Of a stretch of DNA of 64,000 nt, positions 47,622 through 57,451 are shown in pieces (position 1 is the stretch's first letter; the number at the start of each line of letters is the position of its first letter). This stretch comes from Gaertneriomyces semiglobifer. Lineage: Eukaryota > Chytridiomycota > Chytridiomycetes > Spizellomycetales > Spizellomycetaceae. The notes under the pieces were generated by a model. It was not told the DNA's origin. It did not search any database and saw only the letters and a program-made list of their open reading frames with translations. The stretch spans positions 62,001 to 126,000 of the forward strand of contig JAHLKF010000028.1 of assembly GCA_025558075.1 (NCBI GenBank), in the 5' to 3' direction. The position numbers and the translations under genes were made by a program.

Positions 47622-48996
<1,375 letters not shown>

Positions 48997-50517
48997 ATGA
49001 AGGGCAACGGCGACGGACGGGATGGCGAGCTGGATTTTGAAGGGCGGGCTGTACAAGGTCCTCTACCAACATGGGACTGGTCATTTGTAAGTTCACCTCC
49101 GACGCAGTGCTACGTGCCTATTCGCGCTAACGGTTGCGTTTCCCAGGCTATAACATTAGCAGCTCTGCGTGCACTTGTAGCACGTGGCGCGGGATCTCTG
49201 AATCTTGCCAGGCGCCTGACCTCATTGGGCGCTGTTCCCACCCCTATGAAGTGCCGGATAACCAAAATCCGGATGCCAAGACGAGAGGACGTTTTACTGG
49301 AAGGCATGTCGCATGCCGACGTGAGTGGAAGTATCACGGCAGAGTGGGTGTCGTATCCTCAACCTTCTGAAAATGTAAAACCGGATTCCGCAAGTGAATC
49401 AAAGCGTAAAAAGAAAGTCATTCTTTACTGCCACGGTGGAGCCTACTTCGTCTGCTCTCGCAAAACGCACCGCGGCATTACCTGGCGTTTGGCCAAATAT
49501 TCCTCATCACCTGTTCTCGTCATTGATTATCGACTAGCACCCGAGCATCCTTTCCCAGCCGCATTACACGATGTTCTATCCGCATACCTGTTTTTGCTGG
49601 AGTCGTACTCACCGGATCAGATTGGATTCGTTGGTGACTCGGCAGGGGGAGGCCTCTGCCTAGCAGCACTGCTGTGGATTCGCGATCATGGTGGCATTAA
49701 CGTCGATGGAGTTACTCAGCCTGTTCCCATGCCGGGCAGTGCGGTTCTGTTCTCACCATGGATGGATTTGACACATTCACAACCGTCGTGGTTCCTGAAT
49801 GCTCCTTACGACTACTTGCCTGCTGTACCTCAACATAACGCGGCGTGCCACTATTATGTTCGATCGAATGACTTGCTTACTAACCCACTTGTCTCCCCGC
49901 TGTTTGCGGAACCTGCCAATGACAAGCAATTGTGTCCCATTCTTATTCAAGTTGGTGATGCTGAACGGTTACGTGATGAGGCAATTGTCTTTTGGAAAAA
50001 ATTCTCCGACGCCGGAGCGGACATCTCGTTGGAGCTATACGAAGACCAACCACATGTGTTTCAAATGTTCACCTTCAGTCTACCAATAGCACGGCTTGCT
50101 CTCCGACGTACTGCGACTTACTTGCAACACAATGGTTGGAAAGAGGATGGACACCGATCGGTGCGCGTTCGCAACAGGAAGCCGCATCCGGTGGTTGCAC
50201 TGTCTAATCCATTTCATGTTGTTCAACGAGGACAGCTGTTGATGAAGAGGCACACTCCTGAGAGTTCAGAAGCGACGGTCGTTGAAGAAGCGATGGAGGT
50301 TGAGGTTGTTCACACCAAGGAGATCACCCCGGCGGTCGTTGAAGAAACGGTTGAGATCGAGATTGCTCACACCAAGGAGATCACCACGGCGGTCGTTGAA
50401 GAAACGGTTGAGATTAAGGTTGTTCACACCAAGGAGATCACCACGGCGGTCGTTGAAGAAGCGGTTGAGATGGTGGTTGTTCATACCAAGGAGATCACCA
50501 CTGGACAGGTCAGGTAG
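48997..50517 (+). CDS. Hormone-sensitive-lipase-family alpha/beta hydrolase with C-terminal 19-residue repeats
   Basis: Exon 48997-49086, a 60-nt intron (a multiple of three and open, so easily missed) and exon 49147-50517 give 486 residues. The oxyanion motif HGGAYF and nucleophile elbow GFVGDSAGGG mark the HSL/esterase family, with YRLAPEHPFPAAL between them. The acid Asp lies in QVGDAERLRDE and the His in DQPHVFQMF. The last ~80 residues are four near-identical 19-residue units (VVEE(T/A)VEI-VVHTKEIT) with alternating acidic and hydrophobic residues. The substrate is unknown; carboxylesters are likely. Confidence 0.92.
   Translation: MKGNGDGRDGELDFEGRAVQGPLPTWDWSFVSSPPTQCYVPIRANGCVSQAITLAALRALVARGAGSLNLARRLTSLGAVPTPMKCRITKIRMPRREDVLLEGMSHADVSGSITAEWVSYPQPSENVKPDSASESKRKKKVILYCHGGAYFVCSRKTHRGITWRLAKYSSSPVLVIDYRLAPEHPFPAALHDVLSAYLFLLESYSPDQIGFVGDSAGGGLCLAALLWIRDHGGINVDGVTQPVPMPGSAVLFSPWMDLTHSQPSWFLNAPYDYLPAVPQHNAACHYYVRSNDLLTNPLVSPLFAEPANDKQLCPILIQVGDAERLRDEAIVFWKKFSDAGADISLELYEDQPHVFQMFTFSLPIARLALRRTATYLQHNGWKEDGHRSVRVRNRKPHPVVALSNPFHVVQRGQLLMKRHTPESSEATVVEEAMEVEVVHTKEITPAVVEETVEIEIAHTKEITTAVVEETVEIKVVHTKEITTAVVEEAVEMVVVHTKEITTGQVR
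50278..50505 (+). repeat. Four 57-bp tandem repeats at the 3' end of the hydrolase gene
   Basis: The unit begins GTCGTTGAAGAA and contains CACACCAAGGAGATCACC. Four copies of 57 bp (228 bp) differ at only a few positions each and keep frame, implying recent expansion or ongoing homogenisation. Confidence 0.95.
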
Positions 50518-51079: not shown

Positions 51080-54000
51080 TCACTTCTTCAATTTCAATGT
51101 GAGCTTTAGCGGTTTGGGTGCGGGTGATTCCGTTACTTCCGCGCCTTTCTTTTCTTTTTTCTTGCTCTTCTCCCCAGGGACAGGGGTTACCGATGTGCGT
51201 AGTTTAATGGGGTTGGGTTTGGTTTTTTTCTCCGAAGGTGATTCGGCGTAGTCGCTTTTACGCTTTTTGGACGTCTATTGAATATCAATAAAGAGAAGTT
51301 AGAACAATGCATGGAGGCCCACGTAATCAAGCAATCTTTACCTCGACCGGCGTGGCCGTTCCGCTACCAGCCTCTTTACCGAACTGTTGTCGCCACTCCG
51401 CCTGGAAAACCTTTTGGATAGCTAGTCCGCAATTATGCCCATAACTCGTTTGTGGATTGTAATCAAAACAGTTCGCAAACATCTGCTTCATATCCTTGGC
51501 AAACTCGTCCGGTGTCTTGTACTTCTCCTTGTCCAACTTTTTCCGCATAGTTTGCAGGTCCATTGGCTTCTTAATCCGCCGGTAATAGTCGGGTAACACG
51601 GCAGGATCCACTGGTTCGCGAAAGATGAACGCTTCGTCCATGTCGCGGACCCGGATCAAAATGGTACGAATCTTTGCTTCATCGGCGACCGAAAGGTGGG
51701 ATTCGTCGGTTTCATAGGAAGGAGTAGGGACAGACGGAGTTTTATGTCGAGGTGCTCCGTTCGATGCAGTTGCACTTGTCCGCGCGATCGGCGTAGCTCC
51801 TCTTGCTGTTGTCGGCGCCGGACTTGCCTTGGTGCTTCCAGCACGCTTACCCGCTGGGCTTGCTCTTGCAGAGGCAGGCGTGCCATCCCGCGACGCCGCG
51901 CCTTTAAACCCAGCTGCATTCCACTCCTTCTTAAAAAACGATTCGAGGCGCTTCCCAGCCTCATGCACAGCGTCACCTGAAAGATGCTCATCTGTCAATG
52001 TAACCATCGACTACACGAGCACATACTAAACTCACCCGGCAGGTTGAAAAGGAAGCAATTATGCAACATAAGATCAACATCACTTCGGAAATCTTCGGAG
52101 TCCTTATATACGCCATTATCGAACTTCTTTCGGATGGTGCTCAAATCCATTGGACGTTTCACAATTGTCGGATATTGAGGGATGTTTAACGCCACGGGAT
52201 CCACTGGATGCAAGAATGGGAAACCATCAATGTGTGACTGTAATTTGACCAGAATGCTTTCGCAGAGCTTTCCCTCCGGAGTCGATTTCCATGCCCCAGC
52301 CTTAGGCTTCGGCGTCGCCAGGCCTGGTGCCGGCGATCCTGCACGTGATCCCTTCGACTTCCACTCTTTGTCAAACTCTGCGATCAGCGTCCGTGTATCC
52401 AAATTCACTTGTGTACCAGGCGGATTGAATTTTAACGAGTTGCTAAACATGAGTCTGACATCCGATTCAAATTCGGATGGCGACGAGTAAATCCCTTGAT
52501 CCAATTTTTGCTTTATGGTAGATAGATCCATGGGTTCTTTCACAACCTCAAAGTATGTAGGGAGGTTCAAGGCAACCGGATCGACAGGCGTCCGAAACCA
52601 GTGAGACAAATGATGAGAGAACAAAGCTTTCCATACACGTTTGCACTTCTTTGCCTCGTCCTGTGATAGTCCTACTTCTTTCTTCACTTCTTTGTTCACT
52701 GCTACATGCTCGGCAGGTACTGTTACATGATGATCGTGGGCCGTTTGCGCAGGCAAGGTCGAAAGCTCTTCAGTAAGCGGAGGACCCTCCCGTGGAACCA
52801 CTGTACCTTGTTGAGGCGGGGGAGGTGGCAGAGCCGAGGCGGGCACAACCGGTAAGTCCGCAGGTAACCGCGCCGGTGACGGTTCCGGTGTTGGAACAGG
52901 TTGATCAGCTACTTCATTCTTCACCACAACAGGCTCGGGTGGCTCATTCCATGCACTCATGGTCTGCGGAACAACCTTGGTGTCAAAATACTTCTCGAGT
53001 TGTTTCGCTTTCTGGTAGACCGCACTATCTTCCAAATTGTATTCGAAGCAATTTTTGAAAATTTGGCGGATATCACTGAACAAAGTGTTCATATTATCCC
53101 TGTAGACGCCCGCCTTCACGTTTGAATCCACAGTATGGAGATCCATCGGTCTTTTGATAACTTGATAATAGTGGGTATTCGATGAATCTACTGGCCACGT
53201 GAATGGCGCGGCGGCGGGGTGATTTCTCAAGCTAAGCAGCGTCTTTTTGGATACTTCCAAGAAACGCGGATCAGGTTTCGGTAGGTCCAGTGCTGGTGTA
53301 GAAGGGGGCTTTGCAATGCGCGGCTTTATACTGATCTTCATTGTCCGCGGAACCTCGGTACCCTTACTGGTGCCCTTGCGTGCGGTTGGCGTGCCTTCAT
53401 CCTCGCTCGCACTGTCATCGCCACGTTTGTTCAACGGGATCTTAAGCTTAATCTTTGGTGCTGGGCTGGAAGCGTAACTTCCCTCCGGTGCAGGTTCATA
53501 CAAGTATTCACAGAAACGGAGGAGATTGATTCGTACGCGGTGTTCCACCGTGGTGCCCGAGTTCATCATCCGCCAAATGTCTCTAGCAATATCTTGCCTA
53601 GTAGACAAATGATATCGAAGCGCGTCCCAAGCAGAAAGCGCGCTTTCTGAGCCACTGGATCCGGCCGCCCGAGATTCTTCATCCATTACGAATACTAACT
53701 CAGCTATAGCCTTCGCTACATGATAACGCACATAAGGGACGGGATCCTCTGCAACAAGATTCAAAATAAACTGAGCGACGGTCGGAGACATCAACGCATC
53801 CAACATCAGCAGCGCGTCAATCGCAATGAGTCGAACATGTATGAAATTGCCGTATCGGGCGTGCTGTATGAATAACACCAGATTCACCGGAACCATTCCA
53901 ACCATCATCCATTTCAACTGCGCTTCCAAACAGGCGACAGTAACGGAGTTATGGTAGGAGGGTATCAATCGATCTAACGTTCGGTACCGCTCGACCTCCT

Positions 54001-56927
54001 CAACAGCATCCTGCAATAATGGGATGTTCGGTACCTTGGCACCAGTCGACGTCGTCGTACCTTCCCCGAACATCGATAGATCAAACTCCTCGACATCACT
54101 AGTGTCACCCGTACGCGGAACCGCCGTGACTACCTTTTTTGGCACTTGCGTGACAGCAGGCACGAAGGAATTACACAGGGCAGCAATCAGGTTGGCGACA
54201 AAATAGCTGTCGGAATACCGATTACCCGTGTTATCGTTGAACTTAAGTAGGTTCAACAAGAATTCACGGTATAATAGCGGTGCCATGTCCGGCGATTCTC
54301 GAACGGACGCCAGGGCGGTTACCATTGCTTTCTGCACGTAGTATTCTGGCAAGTCATTGAAGTTATTACTTCTCGGCAGGAGAATATCTTCCGTTGCATC
54401 CTGATAACAGTATTTCTCCCTATATGGCGTCAACAAGTAGCGCGTAGTGACACCATGCTTCTGTTCCGAGGCACACTTAGCTAACGCTAACGCTGCCTCG
54501 ACGCGCAAGCCATAGTATACTGTCTTATCCTCTAGGAACTCTGCAAGTGCCATGACAGTTCCTTGAGAAGGGAGCTTGGCGAGGGCGGACAGAGCTTCGT
54601 ATTGTGCGTACACCTCTTTATCCCGCTTCAACTGTGTTGCCCACATGAAATCCGGCTGTTCGAAGACCATCACGCAAAGCCACTCATTATCCGGGTCTAG
54701 TCGAACCCAGTCGAACGTGGATCTATCTGGCTCCTCATCGTTCCATTCTCCTTTGGCGTCCTCCTCCTCTGGCACCGTTTGATCTTCAGCTCCTTTCTTA
54801 CCCTTGACTGTTTTCCGCCGAATTCTCCGGTACTTGGTGTGGTATTGAATATCGTATTGCTTTTGTAAATCTTCCAGTAGCACTTCGGTATCGTACGTCT
54901 GCGTAGGCTCATGTACACGTATGGTGAACGGCCCTGTAAACTTCGAGGTGCTGCCTAATATCCCTCCATTCGTATTATCCTGGCGGTATTTGAATTCAAT
55001 CACCATCTTCTTCTTATTGAAAGAATACTGAAACGTAAAACGAGGACAGCCACTGCCATAGATCCACTGATCGGTAAACGTTTTCAAATCTAGCTTGCCC
55101 GTCAGTTTCCGCGTCGTTCTTATGAATTGATGAGTGCTCAGGCCATTCGGAAGTTCATCGGCTTTCGTGGTGACCAGAATCTTGTTGAGTACCTTGCGCA
55201 TCGAGCCTTTACCGACTCGAGTCTCAAGCATATACAGAATGATTCCGGCTTTCAGCGAAATAAACTCGGCGCGTACAGATGCCCAATCATCCGCCGGGTG
55301 GAAGTGGTGTAGGAGTAGTGGGTCGACCATACTCGTTTGTTCTGCGAATAAGTCGAGGTCATCGGTCGTGATGGTCGGGTATAATGGCGGTTGATTCACG
55401 TCAAGCTCACAAACACGTTGCATATCCTGAACGCGCGTGAGCCCAAGTAAGAACGTTACCAGAAAAAAGGACACCATACCTTTTTCAACCGAAACTTGTA
55501 TTCGTTTCGTCCAAAGAACCTTTCCAAAAATAATCCCGATAAATAGTTACACAATCCTACCGTTAACCATGTGTCCGCCCACGTCTTCGGCGCAACAAAA
55601 TGGCCAAACCACTGCGCGGTCAAAGCTCCAATCAGTAAACGCATGGTCTCGAACGTCTGATCAATGATATCTTCATCAAGCAACAAGTTGGTACTCAGTA
55701 ACGCCATTCCAGCGCCAGTAGTGACGGCATTGTACGTATCTTCCACAAAAACCTGGTTGTACGTCGGAAATGGAAGCGGCACTCCAAGATAGCGCTCACA
55801 AAACGAGATCATTTGTGTCAGGATGCTCGTGGTATACTCAAGTTCCTCCGTTCTTCCAGGCAAGCAAAACGCATACGCCGTGCCTTTGTCATGTGCATGA
55901 TCATGTGTACTCGAATGGTTGGCAGTCATTGGTATATCGTCCGCTTCATCGTCGGAGTCAGAAACGTGCCCGGAGTGCCTAGCCCACGACGCGACCTCAA
56001 TGTTCTCGAACGGCCCAATTGCAAGTAGCACATCTGGTGCCGACGCAACGCTCGAAAGCGTATACGTCGTGATCTTCTTCGCAGGATTATCCGGGTGTAC
56101 CACCTGTTCCATCAGTTCGCCGCCACACACAACGATAATGTCCCGATTGCCGTCATCCTCCCACTCATCGTTCTCTACGTTCTCAGAATCCATGTCCATC
56201 GCTTCTGCTCCAAATACGCTAGGAAGAGCGTCTCGCAGCTTTCGTGGGGTAATCACTTGGAGTTCCCAGGTGCATCGCTCCTGCCATCGATCCAGACATG
56301 GAATCCAACATCTTGCGGAAGATGCCTGATTATAGGTATAGGCATGAGGATATCTGTCCGGAGCGACGTCCGGATCGGGCAACACGAACTGTACACCAGC
56401 AGTAGGGTTCACCAGTTCAAAATCCACGCGAACACTGAGAGGTCGATACGTCGGTATCGCAGATTTAACCGGCGGTCTCTGTTCTCCATTCGTACCATTT
56501 GCTACAAATGTATCCACCTCGGGCACTGGTACAGGGGTATCATTGATTTGCAGAACTGGCGTAACTCCTTTTGGCAAGGTGATCACTAGTTCTCCCTCAT
56601 CGGCCTCTTGCAGTGCATAGGTGTATTGTTGCCTATAGTCATTGAAATGCTGCACGCCTTTGCGCGACGTCGGCGGTATAACGGGATTTAGAGGGTTGTC
56701 ATAAATAAATTTCGCATCGGCATGTTCAACGGACACTTTCAGAATAGAGGTCACTCCAGAATTCAACCGGATCTCTGAAAGGTCCGCAACCAGAGGAGTG
56801 ACAGTGAGAACCACATAGCCCTGGGTTATGAAAATCTCTCAGTTCGTTGCGCAATCTTAACAAAACTTCTCACAGATCCACTCACAAAGATAGTTTGAAG
56901 GTCAAAGTCGAATTCCACGACAACCCG
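51080..56927 (-). CDS. TAF2: TFIID subunit TAF2 fused to four bromodomains; first exon unresolved
   Basis: Exons 56886-56927, 55480-56820, 52036-55426, 51342-51976 and 51080-51274 give 1867 residues after an unresolved start. RVVVEFDFDLQTIF then GYVVLTVTPLVADLSEIRLN opens the M1-aminopeptidase-like domain. It includes SARCWIPCLDRWQERCTWEL and a region (AVTTGAGMALLSTNLLLDE) where the zinc-binding residues of true peptidases are absent, as in TAF2. HEAT-like helices follow. Four bromodomains lie at residues ~1180-1280, 1383-1483, 1510-1610 and 1691-1788. Each has a PVD(P/S) entry, PMDL, and the acetyl-lysine Asn (CFEYN, SLKFN, CFLFN, CFDYN). The tail is Lys-rich. A candidate first exon reading MQKQPSASDDINSKTATKTS lies at about 57080-57150, but its donor is unclear. 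Confidence 0.93.
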
Positions 56928-57451
56928 CTGATGAGATGTGTAAGTCGGAAAAAAGAATCAAAATAGGGAACAAAGGAACAGAGGGACAGAGGCCAGGTTA
57001 GATTGGGATCAGACTGGATCATCATAAAAATGCGGTGAGATACTTATAATTGAAACGGTTTACTTGGCACACTCGTCTTCGTGGCAGTCTTCGAATTAAT
57101 ATCATCAGACGCCGACGGTTGCTTCTGCATAGCTATGACTGCCTCATGCGGTTCGGACTTTCTCCTGGAGGCTCGTAGGTGCGAAATACCGCTTCCTTCC
57201 CGACAGTCTTATGCTGCTATAACCTACTCGCACTTTAAACTGGGTCGAGTGCCGACATGCGGTGTTAGGGTTATGTGACAGTGAGGAACTACTGTCATGC
57301 GGGCCGGCGACGATGGTGGATAATGCGGAAGTATCAAGTCTTTCGATGGATGAGGGAACATATGCATACGGTCAGGACTAGAAAGGGAAGGGAACGCAAG
57401 AAGGATTGTGTCATTGTTATCCGTGGCCGCGATATCGAATGGCTTCCTACT
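56928..57451. other. TAF2 upstream region, probably with its first exon
   Basis: A strong acceptor (TTCTTTTTTCC...CATCAG) just upstream of the TAF2 exon at 56927 shows that another exon lies here. The minus-strand frame from about 57137 (MQKQPSASDD...KPFQL) is the best candidate but meets a stop before the GTATCT donor. Otherwise nothing recognised. Confidence 0.4.

What the first reader, a model, noticed from the sequence alone, without database searches (positions are those of the whole stretch)
51080..56927. TAF2 carrying four bromodomains in one polypeptide
The sequence shows one in-phase exon chain from the TAF2 M1-like domain through HEAT-like helices to four bromodomains, each keeping PMDL and the acetyl-lysine Asn. 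In animals the TFIID bromodomains belong to TAF1 (two), and in budding yeast a separate protein (Bdf1) supplies them. Here TAF2 itself could read histone acetylation with up to four pockets. Whether this organism's TAF1 also has bromodomains, or a Bdf1 exists, is unknown. Some TAF2-bromodomain fusions may already be described in fungi.
Basis: partly seen in the sequence, partly recalled or inferred. Interest (0 to 1): 0.75.

Follow-up and report, generated by a model that had tools for sequence, protein, structure and literature searches.

The report
Fungal TAF2 with four bromodomains

Summary
One minus-strand gene (51080-56927, 5' end open) encodes TAF2 plus four bromodomains. A single exon runs from before the TAF2 Ig-like domain into the third bromodomain, so the fusion does not rest on guessed introns, and a separate Gaertneriomyces sp. 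JEL0708 record has the same protein (96% identical). All four pockets keep PMDL, the Asn and the ZA-loop Tyr.

It is not an oddity of this genome. Of 120 TAF2 homologues listed (157 found), 45 carry bromodomains: usually 3-5 in chytrids, 4-6 in Mucoromycota, 3 in Basidiomycota. Of the 75 without, the named ones are Ascomycota, except one short chytrid model and one record labelled as a plant. The window's four correspond to domains 1, 2, 4 and 5 of related Spizellomycetes.

The domains are BET-type (Bdf1-like), not TAF1-type. TAF1 here has one bromodomain; the Mucorales and Basidiomycota TAF1s listed have none. The assembly shows no two-bromodomain BET protein, only a bromodomain-GATA-ET protein. 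TAF2 ends in a putative ET-docking motif, shared with most ascomycete TAF2s inspected. Most likely TAF2 anchors TFIID on acetylated nucleosomes. The architecture is visible in databases; the TAF1-to-TAF2 shift of a BET-type reader is the interesting part.

The parts
51080..56927 (-). TAF2-bromodomain gene (5' end open)
   Evidence: in-frame exon chain, 1867 aa; 96% identical to P0001 over 100% of the query
56886..56927 (-). Most 5' exon located (start of M1-like N domain); splice into it from the ATG exon unresolved
55480..56820 (-). Exon with M1-aminopeptidase-like domain (PF01433 about 55498-55833); no HExxH zinc site by eye (the stretch that seems to correspond reads LTAQWFGHF)
   Evidence: PF01433 E 1.3e-10; sequence; HExxH motif recalled
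52036..55426 (-). Large exon: TAF2 Ig-like domain (54653-55054), HEAT/TPR region, linker, BD1, BD2 and most of BD3, without any intron between
   Evidence: AlphaFold 10-residue means 81-93 (BD1), 76-93 (BD2), 71-90 (BD3, truncated), about 50-92 (HEAT helices)
53438..53452 (-). hxhKh motif IKLKI in the linker before BD1 (candidate ET-domain docking site)
   Evidence: motif from PMC9177701 and PMC7442819 passages
53003..53233 (-). Bromodomain 1 (orthologous to BD1 of Spizellomycetes)
   Evidence: 65 bits; tree clade support 97-98
52406..52645 (-). Bromodomain 2 (orthologous to Spizellomycete BD2)
   Evidence: 82.9 bits; support 99
52034..52264 (-). Bromodomain 3 (orthologous to Spizellomycete BD4); its C-terminal part lies behind the intron 51977-52035
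   Evidence: 76.1 bits; support 98
51342..51976 (-). Exon with the end of BD3 and all of BD4
51444..51650 (-). Bromodomain 4 (orthologous to Spizellomycete BD5, the sole Batrachochytrium BD and Mucoromycota BD4)
   Evidence: 89.9 bits; supports 93, 97 and 86
51080..51274 (-). Last exon: basic tail ending KPLKLTLKLKK-stop, with hxhKh motif LTLKL at 51089-51103
   Evidence: motif near the end of 11 of the 13 ascomycete or unnamed bromodomain-less TAF2s inspected

Best explanation
This is the single TAF2 gene of a Gaertneriomyces-like chytrid. Its product is a TFIID subunit whose M1-like and HEAT core sits in TFIID as in yeast and animals. Between that core and a C-terminal tail shared with ascomycete TAF2 lies an array of four BET-type bromodomains joined by flexible linkers. 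The array most likely binds acetylated nucleosomes (BET-type preference for diacetylated H4 is expected, not shown) and so tethers TFIID to active promoters, the job done by TAF1's tandem bromodomains in animals and by the separate protein Bdf1 in budding yeast. The C-terminal hydrophobic-basic motif probably docks an ET domain; the only ET domain found here belongs to a bromodomain-GATA-ET protein. Shown: architecture, one exon for core and BD1 to BD3, intact pocket residues, orthology of each bromodomain, BET-type kinship, wide fungal distribution. Inferred: acetyl-lysine binding, promoter tethering, ET docking, direction of evolution.
For: TAF2 domains and three bromodomains in one ORF; one TAF2 gene in the genome; same protein in a Gaertneriomyces sp. 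JEL0708 record. By sequence the best solved relatives are human TAF2 (E 4.8e-68) and yeast Taf2 (E 5.9e-47); Foldseek ranks 1-4 are TFIID entries that one search lists for TAF2, at query TM-scores of only 0.32-0.37 (model mean pLDDT 65.8, pTM 0.46). Bromodomains have 10-residue pLDDT means of 71-93, linkers under 50. Asn 4 of 4 and Tyr 4 of 4. 167 TAF2 bromodomains score on average 91-94 bits to BET-family profiles against 52 (TAF1) and 53 (BPTF); TAF2 and BET bromodomains group with support 89 apart from TAF1. The best matches here of a Geranomyces two-bromodomain BET protein are the GATA-BET locus and then TAF2's own BD2 and BD3. Identity to P0001: bromodomains 97.1, 97.2, 98.1 and 100%, longer linkers L12 and L34 89.8 and 88.9%. 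Two hxh[KR]h motifs in 348 aa of linker, shuffle mean 0.15, P 0.011, the motif having been noticed before the test.
Against: No binding, expression or complex data for this protein. Some relatives have changed pockets (Asn to Thr in BD1 of Malassezia and Pseudozyma; PMDL to ARDL in 6 of 79 domains), so not every domain need bind acetyl-lysine. The BET-profile label alone is weak: of 12 other bromodomains of this genome (TAF1 and GATA-BET aside), 5 also score best on a BET-family profile, by 1.6 to 22.8 bits over TAF1, against 25.3 to 71 for the window's TAF2 domains. A long-branch bromodomain (own_L024) falls inside the TAF2-BET clade. The identity contrast is modest: the pre-BD1 linker (97.1%) and L23 (95.2%) are about as conserved as the domains, the tail 93.6%. 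Of 14 chytrid and Neocallimastigomycete records, 4 lack the tail motif besides the truncated P0010.
Confidence: 0.8

Rival explanations
1. Two adjacent genes (a normal TAF2 and a separate multi-bromodomain protein) wrongly joined, or an assembly misjoin.
For: The Spizellomyces punctatus record P0010 (1027 aa) stops in the linker before the bromodomains and has none, as a two-gene reading would predict.
Against: In the window no stop lies between the TAF2 Ig-like domain and BD3. 45 of 120 listed homologues, among them 12 of 13 named chytrid records, have the same join, including a Spizellomyces (P0002, 5 bromodomains). P0010 is probably a truncated model, and its length equals the lower limit of the search.
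Confidence: 0.02
2. The array is mainly a structural or multivalent scaffold, or reads acetylated non-histone proteins (TFIID or activator tails), rather than histone acetylation.
For: Number and spacing of domains vary widely (1 to 6); some relatives carry pocket changes.
Against: Asn kept in 77 of 79 and Tyr in 79 of 79 sampled TAF2 bromodomains; BET-type kinship; BET bromodomains are known histone readers (established knowledge).
Confidence: 0.15
3. The array replaces both TAF1's tandem module and a trans-acting Bdf1 in this lineage: TFIID's reader has moved to TAF2.
For: TAF1 here has one bromodomain with PMDL changed to PRHL; the Mucorales, Umbelopsis and basidiomycete TAF1s in the list have none; no two-bromodomain BET in this assembly.
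Against: Geranomyces has a one-bromodomain TAF1, a five-bromodomain TAF2, GATA-BET and two-bromodomain BET together, so replacement is not a rule; the missing BET rests on one draft assembly in 66 contigs.
Confidence: 0.4

Closest known systems
TAF2 of other non-ascomycete fungi (e.g. P0001 Gaertneriomyces sp. JEL0708; P0002 Spizellomyces sp. 'palustris'; Mucoromycota P0012, P0014-P0018; Basidiomycota such as P0021 and P0024)
   Same: Same core followed by a run of bromodomains; orthology can be traced domain by domain within chytrids and, for BD4, into Mucoromycota
   Different: Number differs: 5 in most Spizellomycete records, 6 in 5 of 6 Mucoromycota, 3 in 16 of 17 named Basidiomycota (2 scored in one), 4 here after loss of the third Spizellomycete domain
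Ascomycete TAF2 (yeast Taf2; P0045 and other bromodomain-less records)
   Same: Same core and, in most inspected, a hydrophobic-basic motif near the C-terminus; in yeast the tail binds the Taf14 ET domain (PMC9177701, PMC7442819, passages seen)
   Different: No bromodomain in any of the 74 ascomycete, unnamed or mislabelled records without one
BET proteins (Bdf1, BRD2/3/4)
   Same: Bromodomains of the same type
   Different: TAF2 has no ET domain by Pfam; here the ET domain sits in another protein and TAF2 carries the candidate ET ligand
TAF1 tandem bromodomains of animals
   Same: TFIID subunit with bromodomains
   Different: Different bromodomain group (TAF1 bromodomains form their own clade, support 100), different subunit, more copies

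Membership tests
TAF2 (TFIID subunit 2) | M1-aminopeptidase-like domain, TAF2 Ig-like domain and TAF2 HEAT/TPR region in order | tested here: met
   PF01433, PF25316 and PF25577 above cut-off; best solved relatives are TAF2 chains, Foldseek ranks 1-4 TFIID entries
TAF2 (TFIID subunit 2) | Inactive M1 zinc site | tested here: inconclusive
   Judged by eye only in the sequence (the stretch reads LTAQWFGHF, no HExxH seen); motif recalled, no alignment run to an active peptidase
TAF2 (TFIID subunit 2) | Single-copy orthologue, not a paralogue | tested here: met
   One PF25316 match in the 20.9-Mb assembly
TAF2 (TFIID subunit 2) | Physical presence in TFIID | not testable with these tools
   Needs purification or mass spectrometry
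Bromodomain (acetyl-lysine reader) | Four-helix fold with ZA-loop Tyr and BC-loop Asn | tested here: met
   4 of 4 keep both residues; BD1 and BD2 modelled as helical bundles, BD3 only in part because of the intron; BD4 was not folded
Bromodomain (acetyl-lysine reader) | Binds acetyl-lysine | not testable with these tools
   No binding assay
BET protein | BET-type bromodomains | tested here: met
   Profile scores and clade support 89; BD1 and BD4 exceed the largest control margin (22.8 bits) only narrowly (28.3 and 25.3)
BET protein | C-terminal ET domain | tested here: not met
   No PF17035 in TAF2; only ET domain found in the genome is in the C4 GATA-BET protein

The most novel reading that the evidence does not exclude
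Early in fungal evolution, before chytrids and Mucoromycota split, TAF2 captured a BET-type bromodomain that multiplied into an array in front of its ET-docking tail, while TAF1 lost one and then all of its bromodomains. TFIID's acetyl-reader thus moved from TAF1 to TAF2, and Ascomycota later lost the array and fell back on Bdf1. In this chytrid, with no two-bromodomain BET protein found, TAF2 is the main BET-type reader and its tail recruits the GATA-BET protein, giving TFIID a cis-plus-trans reader platform.
Probability: 0.35. Interest if true: 0.65.

Novelty: new member of a known kind. Interest (0 to 1): 0.45.

Why it matters
Budding yeast, the usual fungal model for TFIID, has bromodomains in neither TAF1 nor TAF2 and relies on Bdf1 (established knowledge). 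If other fungal phyla generally carry a BET-type array inside TAF2, as the records sampled here suggest, the yeast arrangement is derived, and how TFIID finds acetylated promoters may be studied as one covalent module. It would also explain why a TAF2 gene appears in a fungal bromodomain search (Cryptococcus, PMC12844337). For this one gene the result is ordinary; the lineage pattern is what deserves follow-up.

Tried and rejected
Two-gene or misjoin reading: rejected by the unbroken ORF and the homologues. TAF1 origin of the array: rejected by profile scores and tree. A Taf14-type YEATS-ET partner: not found; the two YEATS loci look like a RING-YEATS protein and a GAS41/Yaf9-like protein, judged by eye without a Pfam scan. 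Start exon: ATG at 57130 fits P0001 and P0007, but no canonical GT-AG junction in frame was found; left open. No Saccharomycotina, Taphrinomycotina, Mortierellomycota or Zoopagomycota TAF2 is named in the list, so their state is unknown here. Ranking bias: the TAF2 and TAF1 queries themselves contained bromodomains and the lists are ranked by total score, so bromodomain-less homologues from non-ascomycete fungi could be under-represented. Literature: ten searches in the held open library listed no paper whose title or abstract start concerns bromodomains in fungal TAF2; passages only were read in PMC9177701, PMC12844337, PMC13373324 and PMC7442819. The paper I recall as most likely to hold it (Antonova et al., Genes Dev 2019, on TFIID evolution) is not held and was not read, so I do not claim that it is unpublished. 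One search returned no rows because of an id mismatch; it was redone. One search (BD1 DNA against plasmids) found nothing and adds nothing.
Full report
Observation. On the minus strand five exons from 56927 to 51083 (stop at 51080-51082) join into 1867 codons without a stop, across four GT-AG introns of 65, 53, 59 and 67 nt. Pfam finds an M1-peptidase-like domain, the TAF2 Ig-like domain, the TAF2 HEAT/TPR region and three bromodomains in the two long ORFs, and a fourth bromodomain in the next exon. The exon 55426-52036 (1130 codons, inside the 1183-codon ORF 55546-51995) holds everything from the end of the M1-like part to most of bromodomain 3, so the fusion needs no splice between the TAF2 core and BD1 to BD3. 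BD3 is cut by an intron (52035-51977), but its spliced sequence runs on in the closest homologue (104 of 106 residues identical). The 5' end is open: an ATG at 57130 matches the annotated N-termini of P0001 and P0007, but no canonical junction joins it in frame.

Organism and gene. The best homologue is a Gaertneriomyces sp. JEL0708 protein, 96% identical over the whole query, so the window comes from a close relative (Spizellomycetales). The assembly has one TAF2 (PF25316). The best solved relatives by sequence are human and yeast TAF2. The AlphaFold model of the 1183-codon ORF (mean pLDDT 65.8, pTM 0.46, 20 sequences), whose first 40 or so and last 13 residues are not coding, shows helical bundles with 10-residue means of 81-93 at BD1, 76-93 at BD2 and 71-90 at the truncated BD3, joined by linkers under 50. 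Foldseek ranks TFIID entries first to fourth (query TM-scores 0.32-0.37) and also lists BRD4, TAF1 and CBP bromodomain structures. Domain arrangement should not be read from this model.

Distribution. Of 120 TAF2 homologues listed (157 found), 45 have bromodomains by my profile: 12 of 13 named chytrid records (1 to 5 each), 1 of 1 Piromyces (4), 6 of 6 Mucoromycota (five with 6, one with 4), 17 of 17 named Basidiomycota (16 with 3, one scored 2), and 9 unnamed ones. The other 75 have none: 74 that by name are Ascomycota, unnamed, or in one case labelled Mikania, and the short Spizellomyces punctatus model P0010 (taxa from the names and general knowledge). Counts for P0038 differ between (4, two of them fragments; 2). 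The query held bromodomains and the list is ranked by total score, so bromodomain-less TAF2 of other fungi could be missed.

Orthology of each bromodomain. A tree of 113 bromodomains (79 from 20 of the 46 bromodomain-bearing TAF2 proteins, the window's included, 20 from BET, GATA-BET and TAF1 homologues, 14 others of this genome; one weak Piromyces domain dropped for length) puts window BD1 with BD1 of other chytrids (97-98), BD2 with Spizellomycete BD2 (99), BD3 with Spizellomycete BD4 (98, with Piromyces BD3) and BD4 with Spizellomycete BD5 (93), the single Batrachochytrium domain (97) and Mucoromycota BD4 (86). So this gene lost the third domain of its relatives, and at least one domain appears older than the chytrid-Mucoromycota split. 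Rhizophlyctis BD2 and BD5 also fall with Mucoromycota domains (99 and 97), in one case nested so deeply that it may be noise. Basidiomycete BD3 groups with Mucoromycota BD5 (87). These are ultrafast-bootstrap values on about 105 columns.

Kind of bromodomain. All 167 TAF2 bromodomains scored are best on a BET-family profile, mean 91-94 bits against 52 for TAF1 and 53 for BPTF. Control: of 14 non-TAF2 bromodomains of this genome scored (of 15 found; the partial one in L026 was left out), TAF1 and GATA-BET score best on their own profiles; of the other 12, 7 score best on TAF1 and 5 on a BET-family profile, the latter by 1.6 to 22.8 bits over TAF1. So the best-profile label alone is not specific, the margin is. 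For the window the best BET-family score against the TAF1 score is BD1 80.6 and 52.3, BD2 116.6 and 45.6, BD3 125.6 and 56.0, BD4 97.7 and 72.4; BD4 exceeds the control range only narrowly. Rooted on TAF1, TAF2 and BET bromodomains form a clade (support 89) with one long-branch intruder, own_L024. TAF1 bromodomains of fungi and fish form their own clade (100). So the array is BET-type and did not come from TAF1.

Pocket and constraint. The acetyl-lysine Asn is present in 77 of 79 sampled TAF2 bromodomains and the ZA-loop Tyr in 79 of 79; the window has both in 4 of 4. The exceptions are BD1 of Malassezia and Pseudozyma (Thr). Six of 79 read ARDL for PMDL. Against JEL0708 the bromodomains are 97.1, 97.2, 98.1 and 100% identical and the core 96.6%; linkers L12 and L34 are 89.8 and 88.9%, but the pre-BD1 linker is 97.1%, L23 95.2% and the tail 93.6%. 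This is a modest sign of constraint.

TAF1 and BET in the same genome. TAF1 (C1:320463-322016) is followed, in the same gene by homology to P0121 (95% identical over 100% of my hand-joined query), by one bromodomain with Asn kept and PMDL changed to PRHL. Among 120 TAF1 homologues listed (372 found), 37 have one bromodomain (the named ones are chytrids and Mortierellomycota, three are unnamed), 3 have two (fish) and 80 have none (Mucorales, Umbelopsis, Coemansia, Basidiomycota, Piromyces finnis and Zopfochytrium, but also several chytrid models, many of them short, and one Linnemannia model, so some absences may be annotation). Within one genus, TAF2/TAF1 counts are 5/1 in Powellomyces, Thoreauomyces, Rhizophlyctis and Geranomyces (one Geranomyces TAF2 model has 4), 3/1 in Phlyctochytrium, 4/1 in Fimicolochytrium, 1/1 in Batrachochytrium dendrobatidis, 3/0 in Zopfochytrium and 4/0 in Umbelopsis. 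The only ET domain found belongs to a 509-aa ORF with one bromodomain, a GATA finger and an ET domain; 25 records have GATA plus ET, 23 of them with one bromodomain, one with two and one with none. A two-bromodomain BET protein of Geranomyces finds no such locus here; its best matches are the GATA-BET locus and then TAF2's own BD2 and BD3. This rests on a draft assembly.

Tail motif. Yeast Taf2 binds the Taf14 ET domain through a C-terminal hxhKh tail (passages of PMC9177701 and PMC7442819), and Bdf1's ET domain binds comparable motifs in Taf7 and supports TFIID recruitment (passages of PMC13373324). The window's TAF2 has IKLKI before BD1 and ends in KPLKLTLKLKK; two hxh[KR]h matches in 348 linker residues against a shuffle mean of 0.15 (P 0.011), a value that flatters because I had noticed the motif first. 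A looser pattern chosen after seeing the sequence gave 4 against 0.09 and should not be used as a test. Similar tails end P0001 to P0008 and P0013. P0009, P0011, P0019 and P0020 lack it, and P0010 is truncated (some of these are partial or doubtful models). Of 13 bromodomain-less TAF2s inspected out of 74, 11 have a match in the last 25 residues or so (for example LTLKLKL, FKLKLKF), P0114 has one farther in and P0084 none. In Mucoromycota and Basidiomycota matches, where present, lie elsewhere in the protein. The array therefore lies between core and tail in this lineage.

Mechanism and verdict. The best reading is a TFIID subunit that carries its own BET-type acetyl-lysine readers and holds TFIID at acetylated promoters. 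Binding, tethering and ET docking are inferred. What is new relative to the finding is that the feature looks ancient and common in fungi, that this gene has fewer domains than its relatives, and that the array is BET-type while TAF1 lacks bromodomains in several of the same lineages. [quoted passage not shown] Searches listed no dedicated account, but the library lacks most subscription papers and the key review was not held.

Noticed in passing
L014:4507-6033 (+), G000:C4: A BET-like ORF with a single bromodomain, a GATA zinc finger and an ET domain; 25 records combine GATA and ET (those with organism names are chytrids).
   Followed up: partly
L018:5431-6030 (-), G000:C1: TAF1 of this genome has one bromodomain (PMDL changed to PRHL, Asn kept); the Mucorales and Basidiomycota TAF1s listed have none.
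   Followed up: partly
L028:940-2016 (+), G000:C2: A 358-aa ORF that joins a RING-like zinc motif (by eye) to a YEATS domain.
   Followed up: no
L019:4754-6261 (+), G000:C1: Bromodomain ORF followed by an ankyrin-repeat ORF (probably one gene) whose C-terminal part also has the hydrophobic-basic motif LTLKL, a possible second ET-domain client.
   Followed up: no
window 50276-50501 (+): Four copies of a 57-bp tandem repeat (89% matches) inside the 3' end of a long ORF (48910-50517) that by eye looks like an alpha/beta-hydrolase, convergent with TAF2; adds a repetitive tail VVEE..E....HTKEITT.
   Followed up: no
window 56927-57130: The likely TAF2 start exon (ATG at 57130) ends near CAATT/ATAAGTATC, which resembles a donor with A in place of the first G; no canonical in-frame junction was found.
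   Followed up: partly
P0010 (Spizellomyces punctatus SPPG_05960): Annotated TAF2 ends in the linker just before the bromodomains although a Spizellomyces relative has five; probably a truncated gene model.
   Followed up: no
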